Of a stretch of 64,000 bases of DNA, positions 33,928 through 53,028 are shown one piece after another. Location: contig NZ_JARQWR010000003.1 of the NCBI RefSeq assembly GCF_030766725.1, forward strand, positions 186,001 to 250,000, given 5' to 3'. Numbering within the stretch: the stretch's first letter is position 1; each line of letters opens with the position of its first letter. The notes beneath the pieces were generated by a model. It was not told the origin of the DNA. It ran no database searches and saw only the letters and a program-made list of their open reading frames with translations. The position numbers were made by a program, and so were the translations under genes. Source of the stretch: Flavobacterium aerium (lineage in GTDB: Bacteria > Bacteroidota > Bacteroidia > Flavobacteriales > Flavobacteriaceae).

Positions 33928-35034
33928 TTATTCTTTATAATATTCTATGATTCGTGTAGCAATTAAAGTTGGATCGTTTTTGTGGCCTTCCAGATATAAT
34001 TTACATGTAATCCAATTATGCTGAGCATCATATTCGTATTCATAATAACGATTAATCGCTGGCTTATTTCTAAGCCCTGGGGTTGTAAAAACTTGCTCTG
34101 TAATATCTCCATATCGATTGTATTTCCCAATCATTTGTTCTGCGGGAAATGCCCTATAGTTACCGCCTTCCATTATATACCTTTCTACTTGGTTTATATA
34201 ATTTTCTTTGGAATCATAAGTATATTTTTCCTCAAATTCTTTCTTACCGTTTATTAGATAAGTAATTTGAATTAATCTATTCTGACTGTCATATTTATAA
34301 TTTCGTTTTATATTGCTATTGTATGGAGTGTCTAAATAATGCTCATAATAGGTTCCTAAAATTGTATTCTTTTGATTTTCTCCTGCATTAATTTCTTGGC
34401 TTATTAAATTCCCTTTTTGATCATAAATATAATGGGTTCGGGTATGTATATAAGCTGCAGGAGGAGGTACTATTTCATAATCGTCTAATGGTTGATTTTG
34501 TATCTCTTCTATTATCCTGTTTTTATCATCAAAGGTATATGAATATACACCTTGAATTAAATCTGGTTCAATTTCTATATTTGTTCCTCTACTCCATATT
34601 TTTTCATTTAATTTTATCCCAATATTATTATAAGCAGGAAAAGGAACGGCTTGTTTAATTCTATATTTTTCTTTTTCTATTCGATCTTTTTCATTGTATA
34701 CATAATTTGTGGTTGCTTTATAGTTTATAGGCTGTGTGATGGAGTCTTTTAAACTCGAAAGATATAAAACCATCATTCCATGCCTATCAAATTGTTTATA
34801 ACTTACACTACCAACATCATTTTTTGCTTTGAGAAGTAAAATTTCATATTTACTATATCCTTCCTTTATATAAGTATAAAAGAAACGCATCGATTCCACC
34901 TTTCCATGTAAGTTGAAAGCTCTAAGACTAGTATGAATTCCACTATAATCTACATTATCCTGCGCAGTACATCCTGAAATATTTAATATCAGGACACAGA
35001 ACCAAAACATTATTTTCGTTATAATTCTATTCAT
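33928..35034 (-). CDS. YD-repeat lipoprotein, array copy 5
   Basis: 368 residues, last copy of the array. Signal peptide with lipobox Cys22 (LNISGC). YD-like repeats follow, such as YSYTFDDKNRIIEEI, HYIYDQKGNLISQE, NYKYDSQNRLIQITY and YEYEYDAQHNWITCKLY, the RHS-type signature that builds beta-sheet shells. It carries the type-A middle (EEIQNQ, HTRTHY, GTYYEH) and type-A end (LINGKKEFEE, MEGGNYRAF). Its C-terminus reads EYYKE, slightly longer than in other copies. The 2033-residue gene starts 4 bases later. Likely outer-membrane or periplasmic-leaflet anchored. Confidence 0.85.
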   Translation of the reverse strand: MNRIITKIMFWFCVLILNISGCTAQDNVDYSGIHTSLRAFNLHGKVESMRFFYTYIKEGYSKYEILLLKAKNDVGSVSYKQFDRHGMMVLYLSSLKDSITQPINYKATTNYVYNEKDRIEKEKYRIKQAVPFPAYNNIGIKLNEKIWSRGTNIEIEPDLIQGVYSYTFDDKNRIIEEIQNQPLDDYEIVPPPAAYIHTRTHYIYDQKGNLISQEINAGENQKNTILGTYYEHYLDTPYNSNIKRNYKYDSQNRLIQITYLINGKKEFEEKYTYDSKENYINQVERYIMEGGNYRAFPAEQMIGKYNRYGDITEQVFTTPGLRNKPAINRYYEYEYDAQHNWITCKLYLEGHKNDPTLIATRIIEYYKE

Positions 35035-36130
35035 AATACTTTATTATTCGTGTAGCAATTAAAGTTGGATCATTTTTGTGGCCTTCCAGATATAATTTAC
35101 ATGTAATCCAATTATGCTGAGCATCATATTCGTACTCATAATAACGATTAATCGCTGGCTTATTTCTAAGCCCTGGGGTTGTAAAAACTTGCTCTGTAAT
35201 ATCTCCATATCGATTGTATTTCCCAATCATTTGTTCTGCGGGAAAATCTCTATATGTACCACCATTAGATACATATCGTTCTACTTGGTTTATATAATTT
35301 TCTTTGGAATCATAAGTATATTTTTCTTCAAATTTCTTTTTATCATTGACCACATAAGTAATTTGAATTAACCTATTCTGACTGTCATATTTATAGTTTC
35401 GCTTTAAATCACTATTATATGGGATATCTAAATAATGCTCATAATAACTTCCTAAAATTGTATTCTTTTGATTTTCTCCAGCATTAATTTCTTGGCTTAT
35501 TAAATTCCCTTTTTGATCATAAGTATAATGGGTACGGGTACGGATGTAAACTGCAGGAGGAGGTGTTACCTCATAATCGTCTAAGGGTTGATTCCATATC
35601 TCTTCTATTATCCTATTTTTATCATCATAGGTATAGGTATATAAACTTTGAATTAAAATGGGTTCAATTTCAGACCCAGATCCTCTGCTCCACATTTTTT
35701 CATTTAATATTATCCCAATATTATTATAAGCAGGAAAAGGAACGGCTTGTTTAATTCTATATTTTTCTTTTTCTATTCGATCTTTTTCATTGTATACATA
35801 GCTTGTTGTTAGTTTATGATTTATCGGTTGTGTGATCGAATCTTTTAAATTATAAAGATTTAAAATTATCATTCCCTGTTTATCAAATTGTTTATACCCC
35901 ATACTACCAACATCATTTTTTGCTTTAAGAAGTAAAATTTCATATTTACTATATCCTTCCTTTATAGAAGTATAAAAGAAACGTACCGATTCCACCTTTC
36001 CATGCAAATTATAAACTCTAAGACTGGTATGAATTCCACTGTAATCTACATTATCCTGCGCAGTACATCCTGAAATATTTAATATCAGGACACAGGACCA
36101 AAACATTATTTTCGCTATAATTCTATTCAT
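35027..36130 (-). CDS. YD-repeat lipoprotein, array copy 4
   Basis: 367 residues with lipobox Cys22. Type-B in the middle (YDDKNRIIEEIWNQ, IRTRTHY, GSYYEH) and type-B at the end (VVNDKKKFEE, VSNGGTYRDF). Its unique part includes MGYKQFDKQGMIILNLYNL at about 75-93 and IILNEKMWSRGSGSEIEP in the middle. Overlaps copy 5 by 8 bases. The function is unknown; in Bacteroidota, multicopy YD-repeat lipoproteins next to large secreted proteins suggest a protective or surface-display role, which is inference. Confidence 0.85.
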   Translation of the reverse strand: MNRIIAKIMFWSCVLILNISGCTAQDNVDYSGIHTSLRVYNLHGKVESVRFFYTSIKEGYSKYEILLLKAKNDVGSMGYKQFDKQGMIILNLYNLKDSITQPINHKLTTSYVYNEKDRIEKEKYRIKQAVPFPAYNNIGIILNEKMWSRGSGSEIEPILIQSLYTYTYDDKNRIIEEIWNQPLDDYEVTPPPAVYIRTRTHYTYDQKGNLISQEINAGENQKNTILGSYYEHYLDIPYNSDLKRNYKYDSQNRLIQITYVVNDKKKFEEKYTYDSKENYINQVERYVSNGGTYRDFPAEQMIGKYNRYGDITEQVFTTPGLRNKPAINRYYEYEYDAQHNWITCKLYLEGHKNDPTLIATRIIKYYE

Positions 36131-37226
36131 AATACTTTATTATTCGTGTAGCAATTAAAGTTGGATCATTTTTGTGGCCTTCCAGATATAATTTACATGT
36201 AATCCAATTATGCTGAGCATCATATTCGTATTCATAATAACGATTAATCGCTGGCTTATTTCTAAGCCCTGGGGTTGTAAAAACTTGCTCTGTAATATCT
36301 CCATATCGATTGTATTTCCCAATCATTTGTTCTGCTGGAAATGCCCTATAGTTACCGCCTTCCATTATATACCTTTCTACTTGGTTTATATAATTTTCTT
36401 TGGAATCATAGGTGTATTTTTCCTCAAATTCTTTCTTACCGTTTATTAGATAAGTAATTTGAATTAATCTATTCTGACTGTCATATTTATAATTTCGCTT
36501 TATATCGCTATTGTATGGAGTGTCTAAATAATGCTCATAATAGGTTCCTAAAATTGTATTCTTTTGATTTTCTCCTGCATTAATTTCTTGGCTTATTAAA
36601 TTCCCTTTTTGATCATAAGTATAATGGGTACGGGTATGTATATAAACTGCAGGAGGAGGTGTTACCTCATAATCGTCTAAGGGTTGATTTTGTATCTCTT
36701 CTATTATCCTGTTTTTATCATCAAAAGTATATGAATATACATTTTGAACTAGGTTAGGATCAATTTCAGACCCTGTTCCTCTATCCCATATTTTTTCATT
36801 TAATTTTATTGCTATATTATTATAAGCAGGAAAAGGAACGGCTTGTTTAATTCTATATTTTTCTTTTTCTATTCGATCTTTTTCATTATATACATAACTT
36901 GTAGTCGCTTTATAGTTTATAGCTTGTGTGATGGAATCTTTTAAATCATAAAGATATACCTCCATCATTCCATATTCATCAAACCGTCTATATCCGACAC
37001 TCGCAACATCATTTTTTGCTTTGAGAAGTAAAATTTCATATTTACTATATCCTTCCTTTTTATAATTATAAAAGAAACGTACCGATTCCACCTTTCCATG
37101 TAAGTTGAAAGCTCTAAGACTAGTATGAATTCCACTATAATCTACATTATCCTGCGCAGTACATCCTGAAATATTTAATATCAGGACACAGGACCAAAAC
37201 ATTATTTTCGCTATAATTCTATTCAT
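36123..37226 (-). CDS. YD-repeat lipoprotein, array copy 3
   Basis: 367 residues with lipobox Cys22. Type-A middle (EEIQNQ, IHTRTHY, GTYYEH) and type-A end (LINGKKEFEE, MEGGNYRAF), like copy 5. Distinct residues include FFYNYKKEGYSK, VGYRRFDEYGMMEVYLYDL and KIWDRGTGSEIDPNLVQ; the last block is shared with copy 1. Same YD-like repeat order as the other copies and 8-base overlaps on both sides. Confidence 0.85.
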   Translation of the reverse strand: MNRIIAKIMFWSCVLILNISGCTAQDNVDYSGIHTSLRAFNLHGKVESVRFFYNYKKEGYSKYEILLLKAKNDVASVGYRRFDEYGMMEVYLYDLKDSITQAINYKATTSYVYNEKDRIEKEKYRIKQAVPFPAYNNIAIKLNEKIWDRGTGSEIDPNLVQNVYSYTFDDKNRIIEEIQNQPLDDYEVTPPPAVYIHTRTHYTYDQKGNLISQEINAGENQKNTILGTYYEHYLDTPYNSDIKRNYKYDSQNRLIQITYLINGKKEFEEKYTYDSKENYINQVERYIMEGGNYRAFPAEQMIGKYNRYGDITEQVFTTPGLRNKPAINRYYEYEYDAQHNWITCKLYLEGHKNDPTLIATRIIKYYE

Positions 37227-38322
37227 AATACTTTATTATTCGTGTAGCAATTAAAGTTGGATCATTTTTGTGGCCTTCCAGATATAATTTACATGTAATC
37301 CAATTATGCTGAGCATCATATTCGTATTCATAATAACGATTAATCGCTGACTTATTTCTAAGTCCTGGGGTTGTAAAAACTTGCTCTGTAATATCTCCAT
37401 ATCGATTGTATTTCCCAATCATTTGTTCTGCTGGAAATGCCCTATATGTACCACCATTAGATACATATCGTTCTACTTGGTTTATATAATTCTCTTTGGA
37501 ATCATAGGTGTATTTTTCTTCAAATTTCTTTTTATCATTGACCACATAAGTAATTTGAATTAACCTATTCTGACTGTCATATTTATAGTTTCGCTTTAAA
37601 TCACTATTATATGGGATATCTAAATAATGCTCATAATAACTTCCTAAAATTGTATTCTTTTGATTTTCTCCAGCATTAATTTCTTGGCTTATTAAATTCC
37701 CTTTTTGATCATAAGTATAATGGGTTCGGGTACGGATGTAAACTGCAGGAGGAGGTGTTACCTCATAATCGTCTAAGGGTTGATTCCATATCTCTTCTAT
37801 TATCCTATTTTTATCATCATAGGTATAGGTATATACACTTTGGAGTAACATAGGTTCAATTTCTGCTCCTGTTCCTCTGCTCCATATTTTTTCATTTAAT
37901 TTTATCCTAATGTTATTAAAAGCTGGAAAAGGAACGGCTTGTTTAATTCTATATTTTTCTTTTTCAATCCGATCTTTTTCATTATATATATAATTTGTTG
38001 TTGCTTTATAGTTTATAGCTTGTGTGATCGAATCTTTTAAACTCGAAAGATATAAAACCATCATTCCCTGTTTATCAAATTGCTTATAACCTACACTACC
38101 AACATCATTTTTTGCTCTGAAAAGTAAAATTTCATATTTACTATATCCTTCCTTTATATAAGTATAAAAGAAACGCATCGATTCCACCTTTCCATGTAAG
38201 TTGAAAGCTCTAAGACTAGTATGAATTCCACTATAATCTACATTATCCTGCGCAGTACATCCTGAAATATTTAATATCAGGACACAGGACCAAAACATTA
38301 TTTTCGCTATAATTCTATTCAT
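37219..38322 (-). CDS. YD-repeat lipoprotein, array copy 2
   Basis: 367 residues with lipobox Cys22. Type-B middle and type-B end, like copy 4. Its N-terminal variable block (RFFYTYIKEGYSK, KQFDKQGMMVLYLSSLKDS) is shared in large part with copy 5, showing that blocks reassort between copies. LRNKSAINRYY near the C-terminus differs from LRNKPAINRYY in the other four. Overlaps copy 3 by 8 bases. Confidence 0.85.
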   Translation of the reverse strand: MNRIIAKIMFWSCVLILNISGCTAQDNVDYSGIHTSLRAFNLHGKVESMRFFYTYIKEGYSKYEILLFRAKNDVGSVGYKQFDKQGMMVLYLSSLKDSITQAINYKATTNYIYNEKDRIEKEKYRIKQAVPFPAFNNIRIKLNEKIWSRGTGAEIEPMLLQSVYTYTYDDKNRIIEEIWNQPLDDYEVTPPPAVYIRTRTHYTYDQKGNLISQEINAGENQKNTILGSYYEHYLDIPYNSDLKRNYKYDSQNRLIQITYVVNDKKKFEEKYTYDSKENYINQVERYVSNGGTYRAFPAEQMIGKYNRYGDITEQVFTTPGLRNKSAINRYYEYEYDAQHNWITCKLYLEGHKNDPTLIATRIIKYYE

Positions 38323-39418
38323 AATACTTTATTATTCGTGTAGCAATTAAAGTTGGATCATTTTTGTGGCCTTCCAGATATAATTTACATGTAATCCAAT
38401 TATGCTGAGCATCATATTCGTATTCATAATAACGATTAATCGCTGGCTTATTTCTAAGCCCTGGGGTTGTAAAAACTTGCTCTGTAATATCTCCATATCG
38501 ATTGTATTTCCCAATCATTTGTTCTGCGGGAAAATTTCTATATGTACCACCATTAGATACATATCGTTCTACTTGGTTTATATAATTCTCTTTGGAATCA
38601 TAGGTGTATATTTCCTCAAATTTCTTTTTATCATTGACCACATAAGTAATTTGAATTAACCTATTCTGACTGTCATATTTATAGTTTCGCTTTAAATCAC
38701 TATTATATGGGATATCTAAATAATGCTCATAATAGGTTCCTAAAATTGTATTCTTTTGATTTTCTCCAGCATTAATTTCTTGGCTTATTAAATTCCCTTT
38801 TTGATCATAAGTATAATGGGTACGGGTATGGATATAAACTGCAGGAGGAGGTGTTACCTCATAATCGTCTAAGGGTTGATTTTGTATCTCTTCTATTATC
38901 CTGTTTTTATCATCAAAAGTATATGAATATACATTTTGAACTAGGTTAGGATCAATTTCAGACCCTGTTCCTCTATCCCATATTTTTTCATTTAATTTTA
39001 TCCCAATATTATTATAAGCAGGAAAAGGAACGGCTTGTTTAATTCTATATTTTTCTTTTTCTATTCGATCTTTTTCATTATATACATAACTTGTTGTTCT
39101 CTTATAATTAATGGGTTGTGAAAGTGAATCATATAATCTGTAAAGAAACAATATCTCCATGCCATATTGATCAAATTGCTTATACCCTACACTCGCAATA
39201 TCATTTTTTGCTCTTAATCTCAAAATTTCAGCATTACTATATCCTTCCTTTATATAAGTATAAAAGAAACGTACCGATTCTACTTTTCCATGCAAATTAT
39301 AAACTCTAAGACTGGTATGAATTCCACTATAATCTACATTATCCTGCGCAGTACATCCTGAAATATTTAATATCAGGACACAGGACCAAAACATTATTTT
39401 CGTTATAATTCTATTCAT
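38315..39418 (-). CDS. YD-repeat lipoprotein, array copy 1 (mosaic)
   Basis: 367 residues with lipobox Cys22, first copy of the array. The ATG at 39418 is chosen, since the preceding in-frame GTG would add one residue and break the common length. The middle is type A (EEIQNQ, IHTRTHY, GTYYEH) but the end is type B (VVNDKKKFEE, VSNGGTYRNF), so this copy is a recombinant of the two classes. The N-terminal block is the most diverged (GYSNAEILRLRAKNDIASV). It begins 3 bases after the stop of the 1238-residue gene. Confidence 0.85.
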   Translation of the reverse strand: MNRIITKIMFWSCVLILNISGCTAQDNVDYSGIHTSLRVYNLHGKVESVRFFYTYIKEGYSNAEILRLRAKNDIASVGYKQFDQYGMEILFLYRLYDSLSQPINYKRTTSYVYNEKDRIEKEKYRIKQAVPFPAYNNIGIKLNEKIWDRGTGSEIDPNLVQNVYSYTFDDKNRIIEEIQNQPLDDYEVTPPPAVYIHTRTHYTYDQKGNLISQEINAGENQKNTILGTYYEHYLDIPYNSDLKRNYKYDSQNRLIQITYVVNDKKKFEEIYTYDSKENYINQVERYVSNGGTYRNFPAEQMIGKYNRYGDITEQVFTTPGLRNKPAINRYYEYEYDAQHNWITCKLYLEGHKNDPTLIATRIIKYYE

Positions 39419-39421
39419 CAC

Positions 39422-46343: not shown

Positions 46344-47468
46344 TTATACATCAGAATCCTGATTTAAATATACTTCATCTATTTCTTCTTCAGTTTCTTG
46401 TACAGGTGCTGCATGATAGTGTTGTTCATCTTCTCCAAGCACCATTCCCCAAGGCTTTAAACCATCCACACGGTCAAAAATAACTTTGAAAATTGCTATC
46501 ACTGGAATCGATAAGAACATACCCGTAATACCCCACATCATTTCTCCTACCACTAAACCTAATAAAGCGACAAGTGTATTAATTTTCACTTTGGATCCTA
46601 CTATTTTAGGCATAATAAAATTACTGTCAACCAAATGTATTGCTGCCATCGAAATCACTACAAACAATACATGACTACTACTTGTTGTTGCAAAAGTGAT
46701 GATTATCGTAATCAATAAAGCAATGAACATTCCGATGTATGGAATGATATTAAATATTCCTGTAATCAATCCTAGTAAAAAGGCATACTTGATACCAATA
46801 CATTCAAAAGCAATGCATGCTAATGTTGTTACAATCAACATTTGCAGAAAAAGCCCTACAATGTATTTCTTTACAATATATTGTACTTGATTAATCGCAT
46901 CATATACAATTAAACTATGATTTTCATGGAATAACGAAACAATAAATCGTAGTAATAAATGGCGGTGTAACAGAATAAAAAACGTATACAGAAAAATAAA
47001 CATCAGAAACAATACCAATGAAGACACAGACAATAAGGTTTGCCCTACTAGGGATGTTCCCTTACTCAATACATCGGTTGCAAAACTATTGATGTAGTTA
47101 ATCTGTTCTGTATTATTAACATGGAAAGTATCCGAAATCCAATTCTGTAATGTGGTGGTAGTTTCCAATACTTGTTGCCTAAAGGCAGGTAAATCCTGAG
47201 CAAAATCGGTCAATTGAATACCCAATAAAAATAGGACTCCAAAAATGGTAACAATCAAAACCAACAATACAACAAAGGCAGCCAAGCTACGAGGAAAACG
47301 CCAGCGTTTCTCCAAAAAATTAGCAAAAGGCAATAATAGCAGGGAGAATAGAAAGGCAAAAATTAGCGGTGCTAATAGTGTTTCTCCTATAATCGCTACG
47401 TATCCCACAATAACTAAAATAATCAAAACATGTGCTAATCGCGTATAAAAAGGCGTAATCCGTGTCAT
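46344..47468 (-). CDS. AI-2E family transporter
   Basis: A 374-residue membrane protein of the AI-2E/PerM family with about 8 helices. Start LAHVLIILVIVGYVAIIGET, a hydrophobic core region, and the family-typical FNIIPYIGMFIALLITIIIT and HLVDSNFIMPKIVGSKVKIN are visible. Family members export or import small molecules; autoinducer-2 transport is shown for few, and Na+/H+ antiport for others. The C-terminal acidic tail (EETEEEIDEVYLNQDSDV) is cytoplasmic. Alone on its strand between a terminator and the symporter gene. Confidence 0.92.
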   Translation of the reverse strand: MTRITPFYTRLAHVLIILVIVGYVAIIGETLLAPLIFAFLFSLLLLPFANFLEKRWRFPRSLAAFVVLLVLIVTIFGVLFLLGIQLTDFAQDLPAFRQQVLETTTTLQNWISDTFHVNNTEQINYINSFATDVLSKGTSLVGQTLLSVSSLVLFLMFIFLYTFFILLHRHLLLRFIVSLFHENHSLIVYDAINQVQYIVKKYIVGLFLQMLIVTTLACIAFECIGIKYAFLLGLITGIFNIIPYIGMFIALLITIIITFATTSSSHVLFVVISMAAIHLVDSNFIMPKIVGSKVKINTLVALLGLVVGEMMWGITGMFLSIPVIAIFKVIFDRVDGLKPWGMVLGEDEQHYHAAPVQETEEEIDEVYLNQDSDV

Positions 47469-47551: not shown

Positions 47552-48724
47552 TTACTCGTTAGTCAATTTTTTCTTATCAGCATAGGCCGATAGCATCAAT
47601 GATAATGCCCCATCTCCTGTTATATTACAGGCTGTTCCAAAACTATCTTGTAATGCAAAAATGGTTAGTAGTAAAGCTGTTCCTGCTTCATCAAACCCTA
47701 ATACTGATATAATGATTCCCAACGAAGCCATTACAGTTCCACCTGGGACACCTGGAGCACCGATAGCAAACACGCCTAATAATAATATGAAAATTACTAG
47801 TGTTGATAGAGCCGGTAATGTTCCGTATAAAACCATTGATACTGTCATTACAAAAAATACTTCGGTTAGTACTGATCCACATAAATGGATATTTGCAAAC
47901 AGCGGAATAGAAAAATCGGTAATATCATCTCTTAATATTTTACTTTTCTTTGCCGATTGTAATGCTACTCCTAAAGTAGCGGCAGAAGACATCGTACCTA
48001 CAGCTGTAATATAAGCAGGTCCATAATGTTTCAATACTTTCCATGGATTTTTCCCCGAATAAAGTCCTGCCACGCCATACAAAAAGGCTAACCAGATGTA
48101 ATGACAAACAATTACTATAATTACAACCTTTAAAAACACAGGCAACTGGTGTGTAATGGATCCTTCATAACTTAGAATACAGAAATTTGCTGCTATAAAA
48201 AAAGGCAACATTGGTATCAGTACTTTATTTACCAAGGCCAAAACAATTTTCTGAAAATCTTCCAGTAATTCTTCAATCTTTTTTGATTGTGTCCATACTG
48301 TGGCTACACCCAACATTAAGGCTAATACTAAAGCGCTCATTACACTCATCACAGGTGGTATATCCAATTGGAATAATAATGCTGGAACTTCTTTCAATCC
48401 TTCCTTTGATGCTACAATATCCAAAAAGGGAATAAACTGATATCCTACAAAAGCTCCAAAAAGAGCACTTCCTACAGATGATAAATAAGCAATCAATAAT
48501 GCCAATCCTAATACTTTGGAAGCATTGCTCTTCAATCGGGTGATGGACGGAGCCACAAATCCAATGATAATTAGGGGAACCATAAAAAAGATCAATTGAC
48601 CTAATATATACTTAACGGCAATAACAGCCTGAATTTGTTGTTCAGTAATATAGTTACCCAATAGGATACCTAGAATAACACCAATCAGTAATTGGAATAC
48701 GGTACTCGAAAATACTTTTTTCAT
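47552..48724 (-). CDS. Dicarboxylate/amino acid:cation symporter (DAACS)
   Basis: A 390-residue transporter of the DAACS family. Visible are the N-terminal helices (FQLLIGVILGILLGNYI), the hairpin motif GTMSSAATLGVALQSAKK (usual form TSSSAATLP), the IPLFANIHLCGSVLTEVFF segment and the second hairpin GAPGVPGGTVMASL. It takes up acidic amino acids, dicarboxylates or, as in the TcyP branch, cystine, with Na+ or H+. It follows the EamA gene by 38 bases with no terminator, so both lie behind the same tandem attenuator. Confidence 0.9.
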   Translation of the reverse strand: MKKVFSSTVFQLLIGVILGILLGNYITEQQIQAVIAVKYILGQLIFFMVPLIIIGFVAPSITRLKSNASKVLGLALLIAYLSSVGSALFGAFVGYQFIPFLDIVASKEGLKEVPALLFQLDIPPVMSVMSALVLALMLGVATVWTQSKKIEELLEDFQKIVLALVNKVLIPMLPFFIAANFCILSYEGSITHQLPVFLKVVIIVIVCHYIWLAFLYGVAGLYSGKNPWKVLKHYGPAYITAVGTMSSAATLGVALQSAKKSKILRDDITDFSIPLFANIHLCGSVLTEVFFVMTVSMVLYGTLPALSTLVIFILLLGVFAIGAPGVPGGTVMASLGIIISVLGFDEAGTALLLTIFALQDSFGTACNITGDGALSLMLSAYADKKKLTNE

Positions 48725-48762: not shown

Positions 48763-49767
48763 TTACGACGTTGTAATGTGTTTATAAGGACGGGAAATTT
48801 TAGTCAAAAAACGATTGATTCTGCGCAACTTAACCTTAGTTCGTTTATCCAGCTTAATCTTATATTTTGAAATATTTGTAAATAATACCCCCGCCAGTAT
48901 TATTCCTAAACCAATAAATTGTGTACTGGTAATTGATTCTCCTGCAATAATCCATCCCAGCAATACTGCTACAATTGGATTAATATATGTATGCGTACTC
49001 ACCGTAACTGTATCTTTGATAGACAAAAGCCAAATGAATGACAAATAGGCTATAATGGATCCAAAAACAATTAGAAATCCTAATCCTGCCCAAGCTTTTA
49101 TCGGTACTTCTGCAAAGTGTATGCTACTCCATTCACCTCGAATTAAAGCAATACTAAAACTCACTGTACCTGCTACGATGAGTTGTTGTGCAATATTCAT
49201 AAAAGTAGAATGTCCAGCTGGATTATTCTTAGAATATAAAGCGCCCAATACCCATGAAACTGAACTGAGTGCCAATACTACAAAAGCAATAATTCGGGTA
49301 GAACTATCGGCTTTAACCGATACTGAGCTTACACTTCCCTTTAGGAATAATAATAATCCTGAAAATCCTATTGCCAGTCCTAATACGATGTATTTATTGG
49401 AAAAATAATAATTCCAATTTTTCTTATCAATAGCAATAAACCAAAAAGGTCCCGTTGCGATTGCAATTGCTGCTTCGGTAGAGGTAACATACTGCTCACC
49501 CCAAGCTACTAATCCTGTACCTCCTGCCAAAATTAAACTGCCAGTAATCGCGTTTTTCTTCCAATTCGGCAAAGATAGTACTTTCTCGCCTTTTGCATAA
49601 CGCCAGGCAAATAATATCAATCCTGCAATTAAAAAGCGAAATCCTGATAAGATAAAGGGAGGAAATCCTTGTAAACCATAGAAAATAGCTAAGAATGTAG
49701 ACCCCCAGATAATGTATATACTGGCAAAAGCCAGGAAAACAAGTAATGAATTTTTATATAAAGCCAT
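48763..49767 (-). CDS. EamA family (DMT superfamily) exporter
   Basis: A 334-residue protein with ten transmembrane helices in two EamA repeats. The first repeat begins FLAFASIYIIWGSTFLAIFY; the second contains WVLGALYSKN and the end GLGIILAGVLFTNI. Typical substrates are amino acids and metabolites; the name-giving E. coli EamA (YdeD) exports cysteine and O-acetylserine. Two leader peptides with Cys-Cys pairs and terminators precede this gene, which supports a sulfur amino-acid related substrate. The basic C-terminal tail is unusual in length but otherwise unremarkable. Confidence 0.92.
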   Translation of the reverse strand: MALYKNSLLVFLAFASIYIIWGSTFLAIFYGLQGFPPFILSGFRFLIAGLILFAWRYAKGEKVLSLPNWKKNAITGSLILAGGTGLVAWGEQYVTSTEAAIAIATGPFWFIAIDKKNWNYYFSNKYIVLGLAIGFSGLLLFLKGSVSSVSVKADSSTRIIAFVVLALSSVSWVLGALYSKNNPAGHSTFMNIAQQLIVAGTVSFSIALIRGEWSSIHFAEVPIKAWAGLGFLIVFGSIIAYLSFIWLLSIKDTVTVSTHTYINPIVAVLLGWIIAGESITSTQFIGLGIILAGVLFTNISKYKIKLDKRTKVKLRRINRFLTKISRPYKHITTS

Positions 49768-49792
49768 AATAAATTAGAGTAATAAATGAAAT

Positions 49793-49821
49793 AAAAAAAG
49801 CCCTTCATCATTGAAGGGCTT
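49793..49821 (-). terminator. Attenuator terminator 2, directly before the EamA gene
   Basis: A 10-bp stem AAGCCCTTCA/TGAAGGGCTT with a 4-base loop and a run of T on the minus strand, 26 bases before the EamA start and 35 bases after leader peptide 2. Confidence 0.88.
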
Positions 49822-49855
49822 GTAATTGGTACTTTTTATGATCAATAACATTCCT

Positions 49856-49924
49856 TCAACAATACGATAAATTCATATTGCAGCACATTGAAATTGAAAT
49901 CATATTCACATTAATAGTTTCCAT
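49856..49924 (-). CDS. Leader peptide 2, 22 residues, Cys/Met-rich
   Basis: Short frame with ATG 49924 and TGA 49856-49858. The peptide contains the run ISMCCNMNLSYC at residues 11-22: Cys14-Cys15 and Cys22, with five Met in total. It is followed by an intrinsic terminator and then by the EamA gene. The design fits translation-coupled attenuation in which ribosome stalling at Cys (or Met) codons decides whether the terminator forms. No separate promoter was seen, so it is probably part of the transcript that starts before leader 1. Confidence 0.6.
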   Translation of the reverse strand: METINVNMISISMCCNMNLSYC

Positions 49925-49970
49925 AGAATAGGTATTTTAAGTTATCGTTTTGGTTGATTATTTGAGCATA

Positions 49971-50009
49971 AAAAAAAAGCCCTTCATACTGTTGCATGAA
50001 AGGCTTTTT
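49971..50009 (-). terminator. Attenuator terminator 1
   Basis: A 14-bp stem with one G-T pair (minus-strand arms AAAAAGCCTTTCAT and ATGAAGGGCTTTTT), an 8-base loop and eight T. It lies 25 bases after leader peptide 1. The stem is related in sequence to terminator 2. Confidence 0.88.
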
Positions 50010-50033
50010 ATCTATTGAAATATATTTTATATA

Positions 50034-50120
50034 CTAGACCATTTCATACCATAAGGGATTCGAGCAACACATATTCATGTTACTTGAATTAATTATAATA
50101 TTTTGGTTATTTCTCTTCAT
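50034..50120 (-). CDS. Leader peptide 1, 28 residues, Cys/Met motif
   Basis: ATG 50120 to TAG 50034-50036. The peptide has Ser-Asn-Met-Asn-Met-Cys-Cys at residues 13-19, so Met15, Met17 and Cys18-Cys19 form a cluster much like that of leader 2. A full -7 box lies only 7 bases upstream, giving a very short or absent 5' untranslated region. It is followed by terminator 1. Read with leader 2, it forms a repeated leader-terminator unit. Confidence 0.6.
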   Translation of the reverse strand: MKRNNQNIIINSSNMNMCCSNPLWYEMV

Positions 50121-50127
50121 TATGCGA

Positions 50128-50135
50128 CAAAAGTA
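50128..50135 (-). promoter_or_regulatory. Candidate -7 box for the leader-EamA-DAACS transcript
   Basis: Minus-strand TACTTTTG, a full match to TAnnTTTG, just before leader peptide 1. Confidence 0.6.
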
Positions 50136-50185
50136 AATAGTTTTTCAATACGAACGGTATATCGAACCAATTTTTTATCAATTAG

Positions 50186-52165
50186 TTAATATGGAATTTC
50201 AAAATTGGCTTTAAAGCCCTTTCCTGTACCAGTTTCAAAAATAACTTTTCCACCAATCGTATGAATTCGTTCTTCTATATTTTTCAAGCCACTTTTATAG
50301 ACGGCTGCATTCGATTCCATCCCAATTCCATTATCAGAATACGTAATATTCAATTTTTTAACATTACTTAAAAAACCTACAACAATTAGACTGGCTTCAC
50401 TATGTTTTTTCATATTTACCATTAATTCCTGAAGAATACGAAACACAATAATTTTTTTATTTTCCTGAATTCCCTTCCAATCGATTGCATCCAACCCACG
50501 AATGATTACATTCGATTGATTGGTGGAATATTCTGAAAGTAGTTGTTTTAAATGTTCGCCATATTTTGCTCCAGTATCAATCGAACTATTTTCTCTTGAA
50601 ATATCACGGGTTCGTATATATACCTGATCTAATGTATTCATTAATCTTTCTTTATTCTCAGGAGAAGACAAATCCTGATTTTCTGCGAAAGCCATGGCAT
50701 TATGTACATCATTTGCTAATTCATCATGTACTTTTTTAGAAATCCTGGTTTCTGTCTTATACGTTTCCTGAACCATTTGCCTTTTATGTATAGATTTAAG
50801 TATATAAATCAACAAACCACAAATTAATAATGCCGAAAGTCCTCCTAGTCCATATAAGTTTTTCTGATTACTGATACGTTCTACCTGAATTGCTCTAATT
50901 GCTTGGTCTGCCTTCAATTTTAAATTTTCTTCTTTACTTTTAGAAGAATCAAATTTTACGGAAGCAAACTCATCTTTGACTTTCATTCTTACTTTACCAA
51001 TGCTATCTCTTAAATTGTTATTATAGAGGGCGAGTTCTTTTAGTTCAGATCCTGAGCTATCTTGGATTAATAAATGTAACGCTTCAATACGATCGTCAAC
51101 ACTATTATTCTTTGTTGCAAATTCATAAGCTTTTGATGCATATTTTTTAGCTAGAATTAAATCCTTAGGATAATAATAGCGGGATAAATTCATATAACTT
51201 GAAATGAGTTCGTATGAATTATTAATTTGCTCGCGTATCATTAAACCACGCTCAAAATAGAATAGACTTAATTTTCTATCACCCAAATCAAAATAAGCAG
51301 TTCCTAGATTATTCAGTACACGTCCTTTTAATTTAAATACTTCTGTTTTTAATTTTTCATCCTTAATCTCAATAGGTATTTGAATTAATGATGATAATAT
51401 CGGAATAGCCTGCATCGGCGCTTTCTTCTTAATGTATACTACTGCTTGATTATTTTTCAAAATTATTTTTGATAAGGAATCTTCTGTAAGTTCATAGGCT
51501 TTTTGATAATAATCTAAAGCTTTATCATAACTCATAAGGTTTTTATAAGCTACTCCCAATATATTATAGGCTTCTCTATAGTATTGTTTATTTGTAGAGT
51601 TTTTTAAAAACTTTAATGCTTCTGTCGCTGTATTTTCACTCCCAAAATAATCATTAGACGTTTGTTGAATACGGGCCATTAATAACAGTTTGTATACTAC
51701 TTGAAGACTATCTTTTCTTAATTCATATTGCAATTTTGAAATGTTATAAAAATAAAAAGTACTATCTAATTTTTCTTTTTTCCAATAATAATTACCGAGT
51801 TCTTCATATGCCTTTGCTTTATATAAAGTATCATTTTTTTTAATAGCATAATTTTCGAATTTATGAATATAATACCATGTACTATCTGTAGTATTTTGAG
51901 TTCTTAAAGTCACTACATTCCACAATGTTTTCAATACCAAAGAATCTTGATTTGAAGCATAGGCCATTTTATACGCCTTAGTACTGTTATCCAATCGTTT
52001 TTGTATTGAAAGAGAATCTTCTTGACTAAGAGTCAAATATTTATTCACTTGATTAATAACATCCTGTTGCCCAATAATCGACTCTTTAGGTTGATTACAG
52101 GATATAAAAGCCCCTATAATAATTATAAAAAATAGAAGCTTGTATTTTTTCTTAATCGTTACCAT
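50186..52165 (-). CDS. TPR-containing lipoprotein sensor histidine kinase (orphan)
   Basis: A 659-residue kinase with a lipoprotein-type signal (Cys23, AFISC). TPR repeats span about 130-330 (REAYNILGVAYKNLMSYDKA, and KGRVLNNLGTAYFDLGDRK). A transmembrane helix is at about 433-455 (LYGLGGLSALLICGLLIYIL), then a dimerisation segment with His in KKVHDELANDVHNAMAF as HisKA_3-like phospho-acceptor, and a HATPase domain with YSDNGIGME and GLKNIEERIHTIGG. This is the NarX/LiaS-like architecture. No response regulator is adjacent; the usual partner would be a LuxR-type regulator. Confidence 0.88.
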   Translation of the reverse strand: MVTIKKKYKLLFFIIIIGAFISCNQPKESIIGQQDVINQVNKYLTLSQEDSLSIQKRLDNSTKAYKMAYASNQDSLVLKTLWNVVTLRTQNTTDSTWYYIHKFENYAIKKNDTLYKAKAYEELGNYYWKKEKLDSTFYFYNISKLQYELRKDSLQVVYKLLLMARIQQTSNDYFGSENTATEALKFLKNSTNKQYYREAYNILGVAYKNLMSYDKALDYYQKAYELTEDSLSKIILKNNQAVVYIKKKAPMQAIPILSSLIQIPIEIKDEKLKTEVFKLKGRVLNNLGTAYFDLGDRKLSLFYFERGLMIREQINNSYELISSYMNLSRYYYPKDLILAKKYASKAYEFATKNNSVDDRIEALHLLIQDSSGSELKELALYNNNLRDSIGKVRMKVKDEFASVKFDSSKSKEENLKLKADQAIRAIQVERISNQKNLYGLGGLSALLICGLLIYILKSIHKRQMVQETYKTETRISKKVHDELANDVHNAMAFAENQDLSSPENKERLMNTLDQVYIRTRDISRENSSIDTGAKYGEHLKQLLSEYSTNQSNVIIRGLDAIDWKGIQENKKIIVFRILQELMVNMKKHSEASLIVVGFLSNVKKLNITYSDNGIGMESNAAVYKSGLKNIEERIHTIGGKVIFETGTGKGFKANFEIPY

Positions 52166-52260
52166 AAAGCTAAAGTACTAATTATAATGTTTTTTCTATA
52201 GGCATTATACATTCTTCAATCAAAAAGCAATCATTCATTACCGATAATTTTAAATAAAAA

Positions 52261-52288
52261 ATACCCTCAAGAATAGATTCTTGAGGGT
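52261..52288 (-). terminator. Terminator after the 82-residue lipoprotein gene
   Basis: A 14-bp perfect inverted repeat (ATACCCTCAAGAAT and its complement, 2-base centre) with a T run on the minus strand, 24 bases after the stop codon. Confidence 0.88.
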
Positions 52289-52312
52289 ATGTCATACTAA
52301 ATTATTATTCTA

Positions 52313-52561
52313 TTACTTTTTTGGCGGTGTAATCGGTGTATATCCATCATCTCCACCAGTATCAATTTCATCATCATTAGGTATCACGCCTTTTGGGAAT
52401 GGAACATCACCTGGATCATTTATAGAATCTTTAGCTTGTAAAGATTCATATGGTTTTTGACTCATTGTGGTTCCTGATTCATCGTATAAACCATCTGTTG
52501 AACATGAAAATAATGTAGCGCTGATTGCTAAAATTGCCGTATATATAATTGATTTTTTCAT
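52313..52561 (-). CDS. Small acidic lipoprotein, 82 residues
   Basis: Lipoprotein signal peptide with Cys20 (ATLFSC). The mature part is short, acidic and Pro/Gly-rich (GDVPFPKGVIPNDDEIDTGG), with no domain and probably disordered. Upstream the sequence TCGAAC-N6-GTTCGA (52601-52618) forms a small inverted repeat. It has its own terminator, so it is a separate transcript from the histidine kinase. Function unknown. Confidence 0.75.
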   Translation of the reverse strand: MKKSIIYTAILAISATLFSCSTDGLYDESGTTMSQKPYESLQAKDSINDPGDVPFPKGVIPNDDEIDTGGDDGYTPITPPKK

Positions 52562-52832
52562 TGTTTTTAAATTTTAAAAATTTGACATAGGAATGGCCGT
52601 TCGAACTTTTTTGTTCGATTTTTTTAATACATTCATTCCGTTAAAAATTGGTTTTTGGGAAGTGGGAAATGCGACAACAGAATAGGATGATTTATACTTC
52701 CCAGTTCATTATTCTACCCTGTCTTGCATTTCCATAATAGAATCAACTTATACATTTGCCTCAATTGCTGACCGATGTTGTAATTAATTCTGAGACAAAG
52801 AAATAACCATTGTCAACGAGTATTGCAGTCAA

Positions 52833-52911
52833 ATTCCGATGATTCTGATAATTCCGATAACTTCCTTGTATTTCCGCCAAATTCCGATTCTATACCTTGA
52901 AAAATTCCGAT
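52833..52911. repeat. Clustered direct repeats ATTCCGAT
   Basis: Four exact copies and one variant of an octamer in 79 bases, the first three spaced by 9 bp. Related TTTCCG words lie between and after them. Could be a multi-site regulator region or a decayed simple repeat. Confidence 0.55.
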
Positions 52912-52996
52912 ATTTCCGGCTTTACAATCCATTTAAAACACAAAAAATCCAGTGTGAATGACACCAGATTTTTAAATATTGATTTAATTTTTAGGC

Positions 52997-53028
52997 AAAA
53001 AAAATGGCATCATTTACATGATACCATT
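52997..53028 (-). terminator. Terminator of the LysR gene
   Basis: Stem AATGG-x-ATCAT with ATGAT-x-CCATT (53003-53013 with 53018-53028, one mismatch, 4-base loop) followed on the minus strand by eight T. It lies 27 bases after the LysR stop. Confidence 0.8.

What the first reader, a model, noticed from the sequence alone, without database searches (positions are those of the whole stretch)
49793..50135. Tandem Cys/Met leader-peptide attenuators before EamA and DAACS genes
Two short frames with NMNMCC and MCCNMN clusters are each followed by an intrinsic terminator of related sequence, all behind one promoter and ahead of an EamA exporter and a DAACS symporter. EamA of E. coli exports cysteine and some DAACS carry cystine, so the stalled amino acid and the cargo agree. 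The doubled unit looks like duplication of a whole attenuator.
Basis: partly seen in the sequence, partly recalled or inferred. Interest (0 to 1): 0.8.

Follow-up and report, generated by a model that had tools for sequence, protein, structure and literature searches.

The report
Tandem cysteine/methionine attenuators controlling sulfur genes
Ahead of two transporter genes sit two short reading frames packed with cysteine and methionine codons, each with its own stop signal for transcription; the same doubled switch precedes other sulfur genes in this genome and in relatives, and probably turns them on when the cell runs short of these amino acids.

Summary
On the minus strand lie promoter box, leader 1, terminator 1, leader 2, terminator 2, EamA gene and SDF/DAACS gene. 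It is not chance: 77 of 80 EamA-ortholog loci (mostly Chryseobacterium; also Flavobacterium, Taibaiella) carry a Cys/Met-rich leader upstream; two lack it, one is truncated. The tandem arrangement also precedes two further sulfur operons of the window's own genome: metY and cysH-cysD-cysN-cysK-cobA. The 3' end of each leader pairs with the 5' arm of its own terminator better than with foreign arms (permutation p about 1e-4, 25 clusters) or than shuffled leader ends do (0 of 200). Best explanation: trp/his-type attenuation in which ribosomes starved of Cys-tRNA (and probably Met-tRNA) let RNA polymerase past two terminators in series. In relatives EamA is followed by the methionine importer MetNIQ (67 of 80, one more cut off) or an APC permease (8 of 80). 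New variant of a known kind; expression is untested.

The parts
50128..50135 (-). predicted promoter -7 box TACTTTTG (Bacteroidetes TAnnTTTG type); start of transcription predicted near 50123
   Evidence: box 15 nt before the leader-1 ATG; of 18 tandem loci that I chose, 11 have a box in the 60 nt before leader 1 and 0 before leader 2; background 4.1% per 60 nt; box-to-start spacing from passages of PMC6847099
50034..50120 (-). leader peptide 1, 28 aa, MKRNNQNIIINSSNMNMCCSNPLWYEMV
   Evidence: similar leaders before eamA and metNIQ in relatives
50037..50048 (-). antiterminator strand 1 (last four sense codons of leader 1), complementary to the 5' arm of terminator 1
   Evidence: coordinates worked out by hand
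49974..50009 (-). intrinsic terminator 1 (16-bp stem, T run)
   Evidence: -20.5 kcal/mol alone
49856..49924 (-). leader peptide 2, 22 aa, METINVNMISISMCCNMNLSYC
49853..49864 (-). antiterminator strand 2 (last two codons, stop and 3 nt), complementary to the 5' arm of terminator 2
   Evidence: coordinates worked out by hand
49798..49821 (-). intrinsic terminator 2 (10-bp stem, T run)
   Evidence: -14.7 kcal/mol alone
48763..49767 (-). EamA/DMT-family transporter (nearest NCBIfam model YedA, below its cut-off), first controlled gene
47552..48724 (-). SDF/DAACS-family symporter, 38 nt after EamA, probably in the same operon
46344..47468 (-). AI-2E-family membrane protein, same strand, 83 nt further on; possibly a third gene of the operon

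Best explanation
Two ribosome-mediated transcription attenuators in series control a transporter operon that belongs to a sulfur-amino-acid regulon. Transcription starts just before leader 1. If Cys-tRNA (and probably Met-tRNA) is plentiful, the ribosome runs to the stop codon and covers the last codons of the leader; these codons are the antiterminator strand, so the terminator folds and transcription ends. If charged tRNA is scarce, the ribosome stalls on the Met/Cys cluster some 9-18 codons before the stop, the antiterminator pairs with the 5' arm of the terminator, and RNA polymerase passes. It then meets a second leader and terminator that repeat the test, so the genes are on only when both read 'starved'. 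Shown by sequence: leaders, terminators, complementarity, recurrence, position before sulfur genes. Inferred: translation of the leaders, stalling, the inducing signal, series (AND-like) logic, import of a sulfur compound by the transporters.
For: Anatomy. 77 of 80 EamA loci (the best 80 of 106 found) have a Cys/Met-rich frame in the 560 nt upstream (at least 1 Cys and 4 Cys+Met, terminator not required). The two untruncated loci without one, L106 and L107 (two similar MAG loci), also lack MetNIQ/APC neighbours in the 3.5-4 kb held. Scan of the 80 loci: 72 leader+terminator hits before EamA, 7 elsewhere, 5 of them before metY. Own genome: of 148 MCC codon places 100 were listed; 94 stretches covering 98 of them gave 54 short frames with MCC, 2 with a terminator-like site; one looks accidental, the other is a Cys/Met leader before cysH-cysD-cysN-cysK-cobA, again in tandem. 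The own metY is tandem too. Antiterminator: own pairs -12.26 against -8.73 kcal/mol with foreign arms, 0 of 10000 permutations as low (25 clusters, some still related); against shuffled leader ends 0 of 200, 24 of 25 clusters below their shuffled mean. In the stalled state the terminator 5' arm is 74% paired, with the ribosome at stop 18%, in this order in 25 of 25 clusters (partly built in, since a stalled ribosome leaves more RNA free). Cys peaks 10-12 and Met 9-15 codons before the stop (leaders were selected for Cys/Met content, not position). The terminator covaries in 48 Chryseobacterium sequences. Downstream genes by similarity: MetNIQ 67 of 80 plus one cut off, APC permease 8, neither 4.
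Against: No expression, translation or stalling data. Within Chryseobacterium alone the antiterminator helix is 87.5% paired but shows no covariation. The same alignment has a more constant alternative pairing between TGTATGCC, which encodes Cys-Met-Pro, and the terminator arm (98.8% paired, no covariation), so part of the Cys-Met conservation there could be RNA constraint. pN/pS of leaders is only moderately below 1 (0.54, 0.65, 0.73). SDF/DAACS genes 62-65% identical to the window's in other genomes of the genus have no such leader (5 of 5 loci inspected). 3 of 25 own arms rank 16th, 17th and 19th, and one cluster of 25 is not below its shuffled mean. Twenty of 130 leader candidates had no terminator by my criteria. 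Substrates of EamA and DAACS are unknown. Identity between individual leaders is low (window leader 1 to the other rows: 21-41%).
Confidence: 0.85

Rival explanations
1. The Cys/Met-rich nascent peptide is a direct sensor of a metal (such as Cu(I) or Zn) or of thiol stress; binding or oxidation in the ribosome exit region arrests translation and opens an exporter operon in metal excess.
For: Cys, Met and sometimes His cluster in the peptides; EamA-family proteins are often exporters (recalled), so the sign would fit an exporter.
Against: The genes behind such leaders are for sulfur acquisition: cysHDN-cysK-cobA, metY, metNIQ. The cluster sits upstream of the antiterminator, where stall codons are expected. 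Taibaiella helva leader 1 has CC..CC with one Met beyond the start.
Confidence: 0.06
2. A narrower form of the best explanation: only methionine, or only cysteine, is sensed; the other residue is incidental or set by RNA pairing.
For: Many metY leaders are very Met-rich; Taibaiella helva leaders are Cys-rich and Met-poor; TGTATGCC in Chryseobacterium may also serve RNA pairing.
Against: In all 25 clusters every member has at least one Cys and one Met in codons 5-16 before the stop (the filter asked for at least 2 Cys and 4 Cys+Met, so this is partly guaranteed).
Confidence: 0.3
3. The short frames are not translated regulators; the two terminators end transcription of the upstream histidine kinase gene or are constitutive insulators.
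For: Both terminators lie downstream of the kinase gene on the same strand, and translation is untested.
Against: A promoter box lies between the kinase gene and leader 1; leaders show lower change at codon positions 1 and 2 than 3 and recur before other sulfur genes with other upstream neighbours.
Confidence: 0.05

Closest known systems
Ribosome-mediated leader-peptide attenuators (trp, his, thr type; recalled)
   Same: Short ORF with clustered regulatory codons, antiterminator overlapping the end of the ORF, intrinsic terminator, genes of the matching pathway.
   Different: Two different sulfur amino acids in one cluster; the whole unit is doubled; the host belongs to the Bacteroidota, whose members lack Shine-Dalgarno sequences (abstract start of PMC6847099).
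Tandem attenuators of Salmonella mgtCBR (PMC3641672; abstract and one discussion section read)
   Same: Two short ORFs in one leader RNA, each part of an attenuator.
   Different: There the two sense different signals (ATP, proline), act additively and the stem-loops do not resemble intrinsic terminators; here both units are Cys/Met-rich and each has an intrinsic terminator.
uORFC-8-2 motif before cysS in Rhodobacterales (PMC8632094; passages read)
   Same: Leader ORF with two tandem Cys codons and a terminator.
   Different: Single unit, Cys codons only, different phylum and gene.
Cys-rich leader peptides before cys operons in Mycobacterium and relatives (PMC1262725; passages read)
   Same: Cys-run leader before sulfur genes.
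   Different: Cys codons near the stop and no conserved terminator; single unit.
Leader-peptide attenuators reported for amino-acid operons of Flavobacterium psychrophilum (PMC9723704; passages read)
   Same: Same family of bacteria; [quoted passage not shown]
   Different: The passages seen name neither Cys/Met leaders, tandem units nor transporters; the supplement was not available here.
Short ORFs in long 5' UTRs of Bacteroides thetaiotaomicron (PMC7366714; passages read)
   Different: The example given has no stated link to sulfur genes.

Membership tests
ribosome-mediated transcription attenuator | short ORF with clustered codons of the regulatory amino acid | tested here: met
ribosome-mediated transcription attenuator | intrinsic terminator after the ORF and before the gene | tested here: met
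   both units of the window; for relatives, where some second leaders have no terminator by my criteria
ribosome-mediated transcription attenuator | antiterminator that excludes the terminator and is covered by a ribosome at the leader's stop | tested here: met
   (computed only); no covariation of it within Chryseobacterium
ribosome-mediated transcription attenuator | controls genes for synthesis or uptake of that amino acid | tested here: inconclusive
   Yes by position for metY, cysHDNK-cobA and metNIQ; for the window's own EamA and DAACS the substrate is unknown
ribosome-mediated transcription attenuator | leader is translated and expression responds to the amino acid | not testable with these tools
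   needs reporters or ribosome profiling
tandem attenuators (mgtCBR type) | two leader ORFs, each with its own attenuating structure, in one transcript | tested here: met
   one transcript is inferred from the lack of a promoter box in the 60 nt before leader 2 in 18 of 18 tandem loci examined
tandem attenuators (mgtCBR type) | the two units respond to different signals | not tested
   composition suggests the same kind of signal
O-acetylserine/cysteine exporter EamA (NF008523) | score above the curated cut-off | tested here: not met
   24.1 bits against 472
cystine-carrying DAACS | match to a curated model of such a transporter | tested here: not met
   no NCBIfam model at E 0.001; Pfam SDF only; nearest solved chains are EAAT/ASCT-type and SDF-family glutamate symporters
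known riboswitch or other Rfam element | match at the gathering score | tested here: not met
   0 matches in the window

The most novel reading that the evidence does not exclude
A mobile, usually doubled Cys+Met attenuator module is a main controller of sulfur acquisition in several Bacteroidota lineages (sulfate assimilation, homocysteine synthesis, Met and other amino-acid import). Two serial ribosome checkpoints multiply into a low-leak, AND-like switch for Cys and Met charging, and in the tandem eamA operons the first leader is read from a nearly leaderless mRNA (predicted 3-6 nt), so that translation begins as soon as the RNA emerges.
Probability: 0.35. Interest if true: 0.75.

Novelty: new variant of a known kind. 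Interest (0 to 1): 0.62.

Why it matters
It gives a concrete, testable RNA-level sulfur regulon for bacteria in which I found leader-peptide attenuation described only in general terms. It suggests sulfur-amino-acid roles for EamA and neighbouring transporters of unknown substrate by shared regulation, and it offers a natural series of two attenuators of the same type in which the purpose of doubling (lower leak, steeper response, or separate Cys and Met sensing) can be measured. A published ribosome-profiling study of Flavobacterium johnsoniae (PMC6847099) could be reanalysed.

Tried and rejected
a pattern search in the own genome with an ill-chosen 18-base pattern of mine; no match, no use. 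DNA comparison of the leader region with 40 genomes; only short matches, so DNA similarity is not the way to find relatives; looked for the leader before SDF/DAACS homologs in the genus; none, so the idea that the DAACS carries the regulation was dropped. MetX model in 41 genomes at E 1e-60; no match, no conclusion drawn; no covariation of the antiterminator within Chryseobacterium; alignment A2 was made with hand-estimated coordinates for five metNIQ loci, some of which cut the leader; used for no count; solved relatives of DAACS gave no substrate; EamA had none at E 0.001.

Counts with misses. metNIQ without eamA in the genus: 8 of 10 loci show a leader-like frame of this type (one of the 8 has a single Cys) and 5 of 10 a terminator after it by my criteria. 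cysH homologs at 52-58% identity (23 loci, L289-L311): none has such a unit in the 900 nt upstream; of the 7 closest (62% or more, own included) 6 have, 5 of them two. metY: one search misplaced the upstream region of L142 and L154 (short flanks); redone: 23 of 30 loci have at least one leader+terminator unit and 10 have two by the filter; the own genome's first leader has a single Cys, fails the filter and was found by eye. L154 was therefore not in the pairing tests. Of 130 leader candidates, 20 without a recognised terminator were left out of the pairing tests. The first leader of L100 has 2 Cys and 1 Met and fails the filter; it is seen.

Literature: searches listed no paper that describes tandem Cys/Met leaders in Bacteroidota as far as titles, abstract starts and the passages read show. 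PMC2965389 was also looked at in passages: no mention of Bacteroidetes. Only open-licence PMC texts are held and supplements (such as that of PMC9723704) could not be read, so 'not in print' is not claimed.

Full report
What is there. The finding lies on the minus strand. Reading in that direction: a Bacteroidetes-type -7 box TACTTTTG (50135-50128), leader 1 (50120-50034), terminator 1 (50009-49974), leader 2 (49924-49856), terminator 2 (49821-49798), an EamA-family gene (49767-48763) and, 38 nt on, an SDF/DAACS-family gene (48724-47552). Five terminator-like sites were found in 49000-53000 where shuffles give 1.4 on average. No Rfam family is matched in the window.

Recurrence. The EamA gene is rare in its own genus (4 of 150 genomes at E 1e-60, own included), but a scan of named genomes gave 106 relatives, of which the best 80 were kept. 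Of these, 77 have a Cys/Met-rich short frame in the 560 nt upstream (at least 1 Cys and at least 4 Cys+Met beyond the start; terminator not required); L106 and L107 have none and L108 is truncated. Chryseobacterium loci have as a rule one leader (such as ...KNMMKDICMPVHQEYCG). The Flavobacterium-type loci L035, L036, L037, L040 and L048, L100 and the unnamed L032 have two. L098, L105 and L110 have two and L101 three. Not every second leader is followed by a terminator that meets my criteria. A scan of all 80 loci, both strands, with a stricter filter found 72 leader+terminator hits before EamA (8 more without terminator) against 7 elsewhere (132 more without terminator); of the 7, five stand before a divergent metY gene and one is a further leader of L101.

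What the genes are. By similarity to L047, L037 and the window, in 67 of 80 loci EamA is followed within 4.5 kb by MetN, MetI and MetQ, plus one locus cut off after MetI; in 8 by an APC amino-acid permease; in 4 by neither (L100, L105 with 1.1 kb held, and the leaderless L106 and L107). Models: MetI and MetQ of L047 exceed their cut-offs, MetN scores 447.5 against 499.7; the APC permease is nearest BcaP but below its cut-off; the divergent gene of L037 is MetY, 634.9 bits against 495.1. The window has SDF/DAACS in the importer's place. The own genome has no MetQ match at E 1e-40.

A regulon in the same genome. metY is present in 37 of 61 genomes of the genus, own included. Of 30 metY loci read, 23 have at least one leader+terminator unit by the filter and 10 have two (which corrects two misplaced loci); the own genome's metY has two as well, the first with a single Cys. 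Searching the own genome for the codons Met-Cys-Cys gave 148 places, 100 listed; 94 stretches covering 98 of these (the window's two left out) were read. They hold 54 short frames with MCC, two followed by a terminator-like site: one looks accidental (no Met beyond the start), the other is a Cys/Met leader. That one is the second of two tandem leaders (MTNQVLCMTMCMCFSENEEVSAMV and MNTMKNNFNTISFNNMMMCCMCRYTGGVLLYYSYK, each with a terminator) before cysH-cysD-cysN-cysK-cobA, named by NCBIfam models. Among 30 cysH loci read, 6 of the 7 closest have leader units, 5 of them two; the other 23 have none. In L285 and L286 the first leader before cysH is of the type found before metY, which suggests that the modules move between operons. 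MetQ occurs in 10 of 61 genomes of the genus; before metN there, 8 of 10 have a frame resembling window leader 1, such as MKNDNQNTNYYNSNMMCCATMRWYELAYI, and 5 of 10 a recognised terminator, with the AGCCTTTCAT arm also seen in terminator 1. The genus also uses the SAM-I riboswitch: 18 of 21 genomes, with one in the own genome about 2.7 kb downstream of metY.

Mechanism. For 110 leader+terminator units the end of the leader was paired with the 5' arm of its terminator. With one representative of each of 25 sequence clusters, own pairs average -12.26 kcal/mol and foreign pairs -8.73 (0 of 10000 permutations as low; 22 of 25 own arms rank 9th or better of 25, three rank 16th to 19th; some clusters are still related). 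Shuffled leader ends give -8.63 and none of 200 reaches the observed mean. For the window, TATGAAATGGTC at the end of leader 1 faces AAGCCTTTCATG of terminator 1, and TATTGTTGAAGG at the end of leader 2 faces CCCTTCAATGA of terminator 2. When RNA polymerase has reached the terminator loop, the freed RNA folds to -10.5 and -12.9 kcal/mol if a ribosome stands on the second Cys codon, and to 0 if it stands at the stop (the 13-nt ribosome reach is assumed from general knowledge). Cys peaks 10-12 codons and Met 9-15 codons before the stop. This is the geometry of trp/his-type attenuation. In Chryseobacterium the terminator shows compensatory change (22 of 48 sequences at one pair, 4 at another), the antiterminator does not, and a second, unvarying pairing with the Cys-Met-Pro codons is possible.

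Direction. Stalling on Cys/Met codons means readthrough in starvation. That suits cysHDNK-cobA, metY and MetNIQ. I infer that EamA and DAACS here serve uptake or redistribution of a sulfur compound; this is not shown.

Doubling and promoter. In 18 tandem loci that I chose, a TAnnTTTG box stands within 60 nt before leader 1 in 11 and before leader 2 in none, background 4.1%; five of the seven without a box are metY loci. In 7 of the 8 tandem eamA loci among them (not L098) the box begins 15-18 nt before the leader-1 ATG; with the spacing reported for F. [quoted passage not shown] In Chryseobacterium-type loci 55 of 56 leaders have a box 28-35 nt before the ATG. Series doubling should multiply two termination probabilities; whether the two units differ in signal is open.

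Known or new. Leader-peptide attenuation is classical. Two leader ORFs in one transcript are known from Salmonella mgtCBR, with different signals and without structures resembling intrinsic terminators (PMC3641672, abstract and one discussion section). Cys leaders are known from Rhodobacterales cysS and from Actinobacteria (passages). Attenuation in amino-acid operons of a Flavobacterium, and leader-like sORFs in a Bacteroides, have been reported in general terms (passages). Nine paper searches listed no description of Cys+Met tandem units or of this regulon that I could see; they do not cover subscription journals or supplements. I therefore call it a new variant of a known kind.

Noticed in passing
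window 33928-39421 (-): Five tandem, closely similar ORFs of about 367 aa that look like lipoproteins (by eye), beside giant ORFs of 1978, 2033 and 1238 aa; unexplained local gene amplification.
   Followed up: no
L052: Record titled Glaciecola amylolytica carries a Chryseobacterium-like eamA-metNIQ operon with a Cys/Met leader; the label or assembly may be wrong.
   Followed up: no
G000:C4:42627-42732 (-), L314: SAM-I riboswitch about 2.7 kb downstream of the attenuated metY gene: two kinds of sulfur-sensing RNA close together.
   Followed up: partly
L101, 200-540 nt upstream of eamA: Taibaiella chishuiensis seems to have three Cys-rich leaders in a row, only the first with a terminator by my criteria.
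   Followed up: no
L285, L286 upstream of cysH: The first leader before cysH is of the type otherwise found before metY, suggesting that attenuator modules move between operons.
   Followed up: partly
window 50186-52165 (-): TPR-containing histidine-kinase-like gene ending just upstream of the leader region, with no terminator listed between it and leader 1.
   Followed up: no
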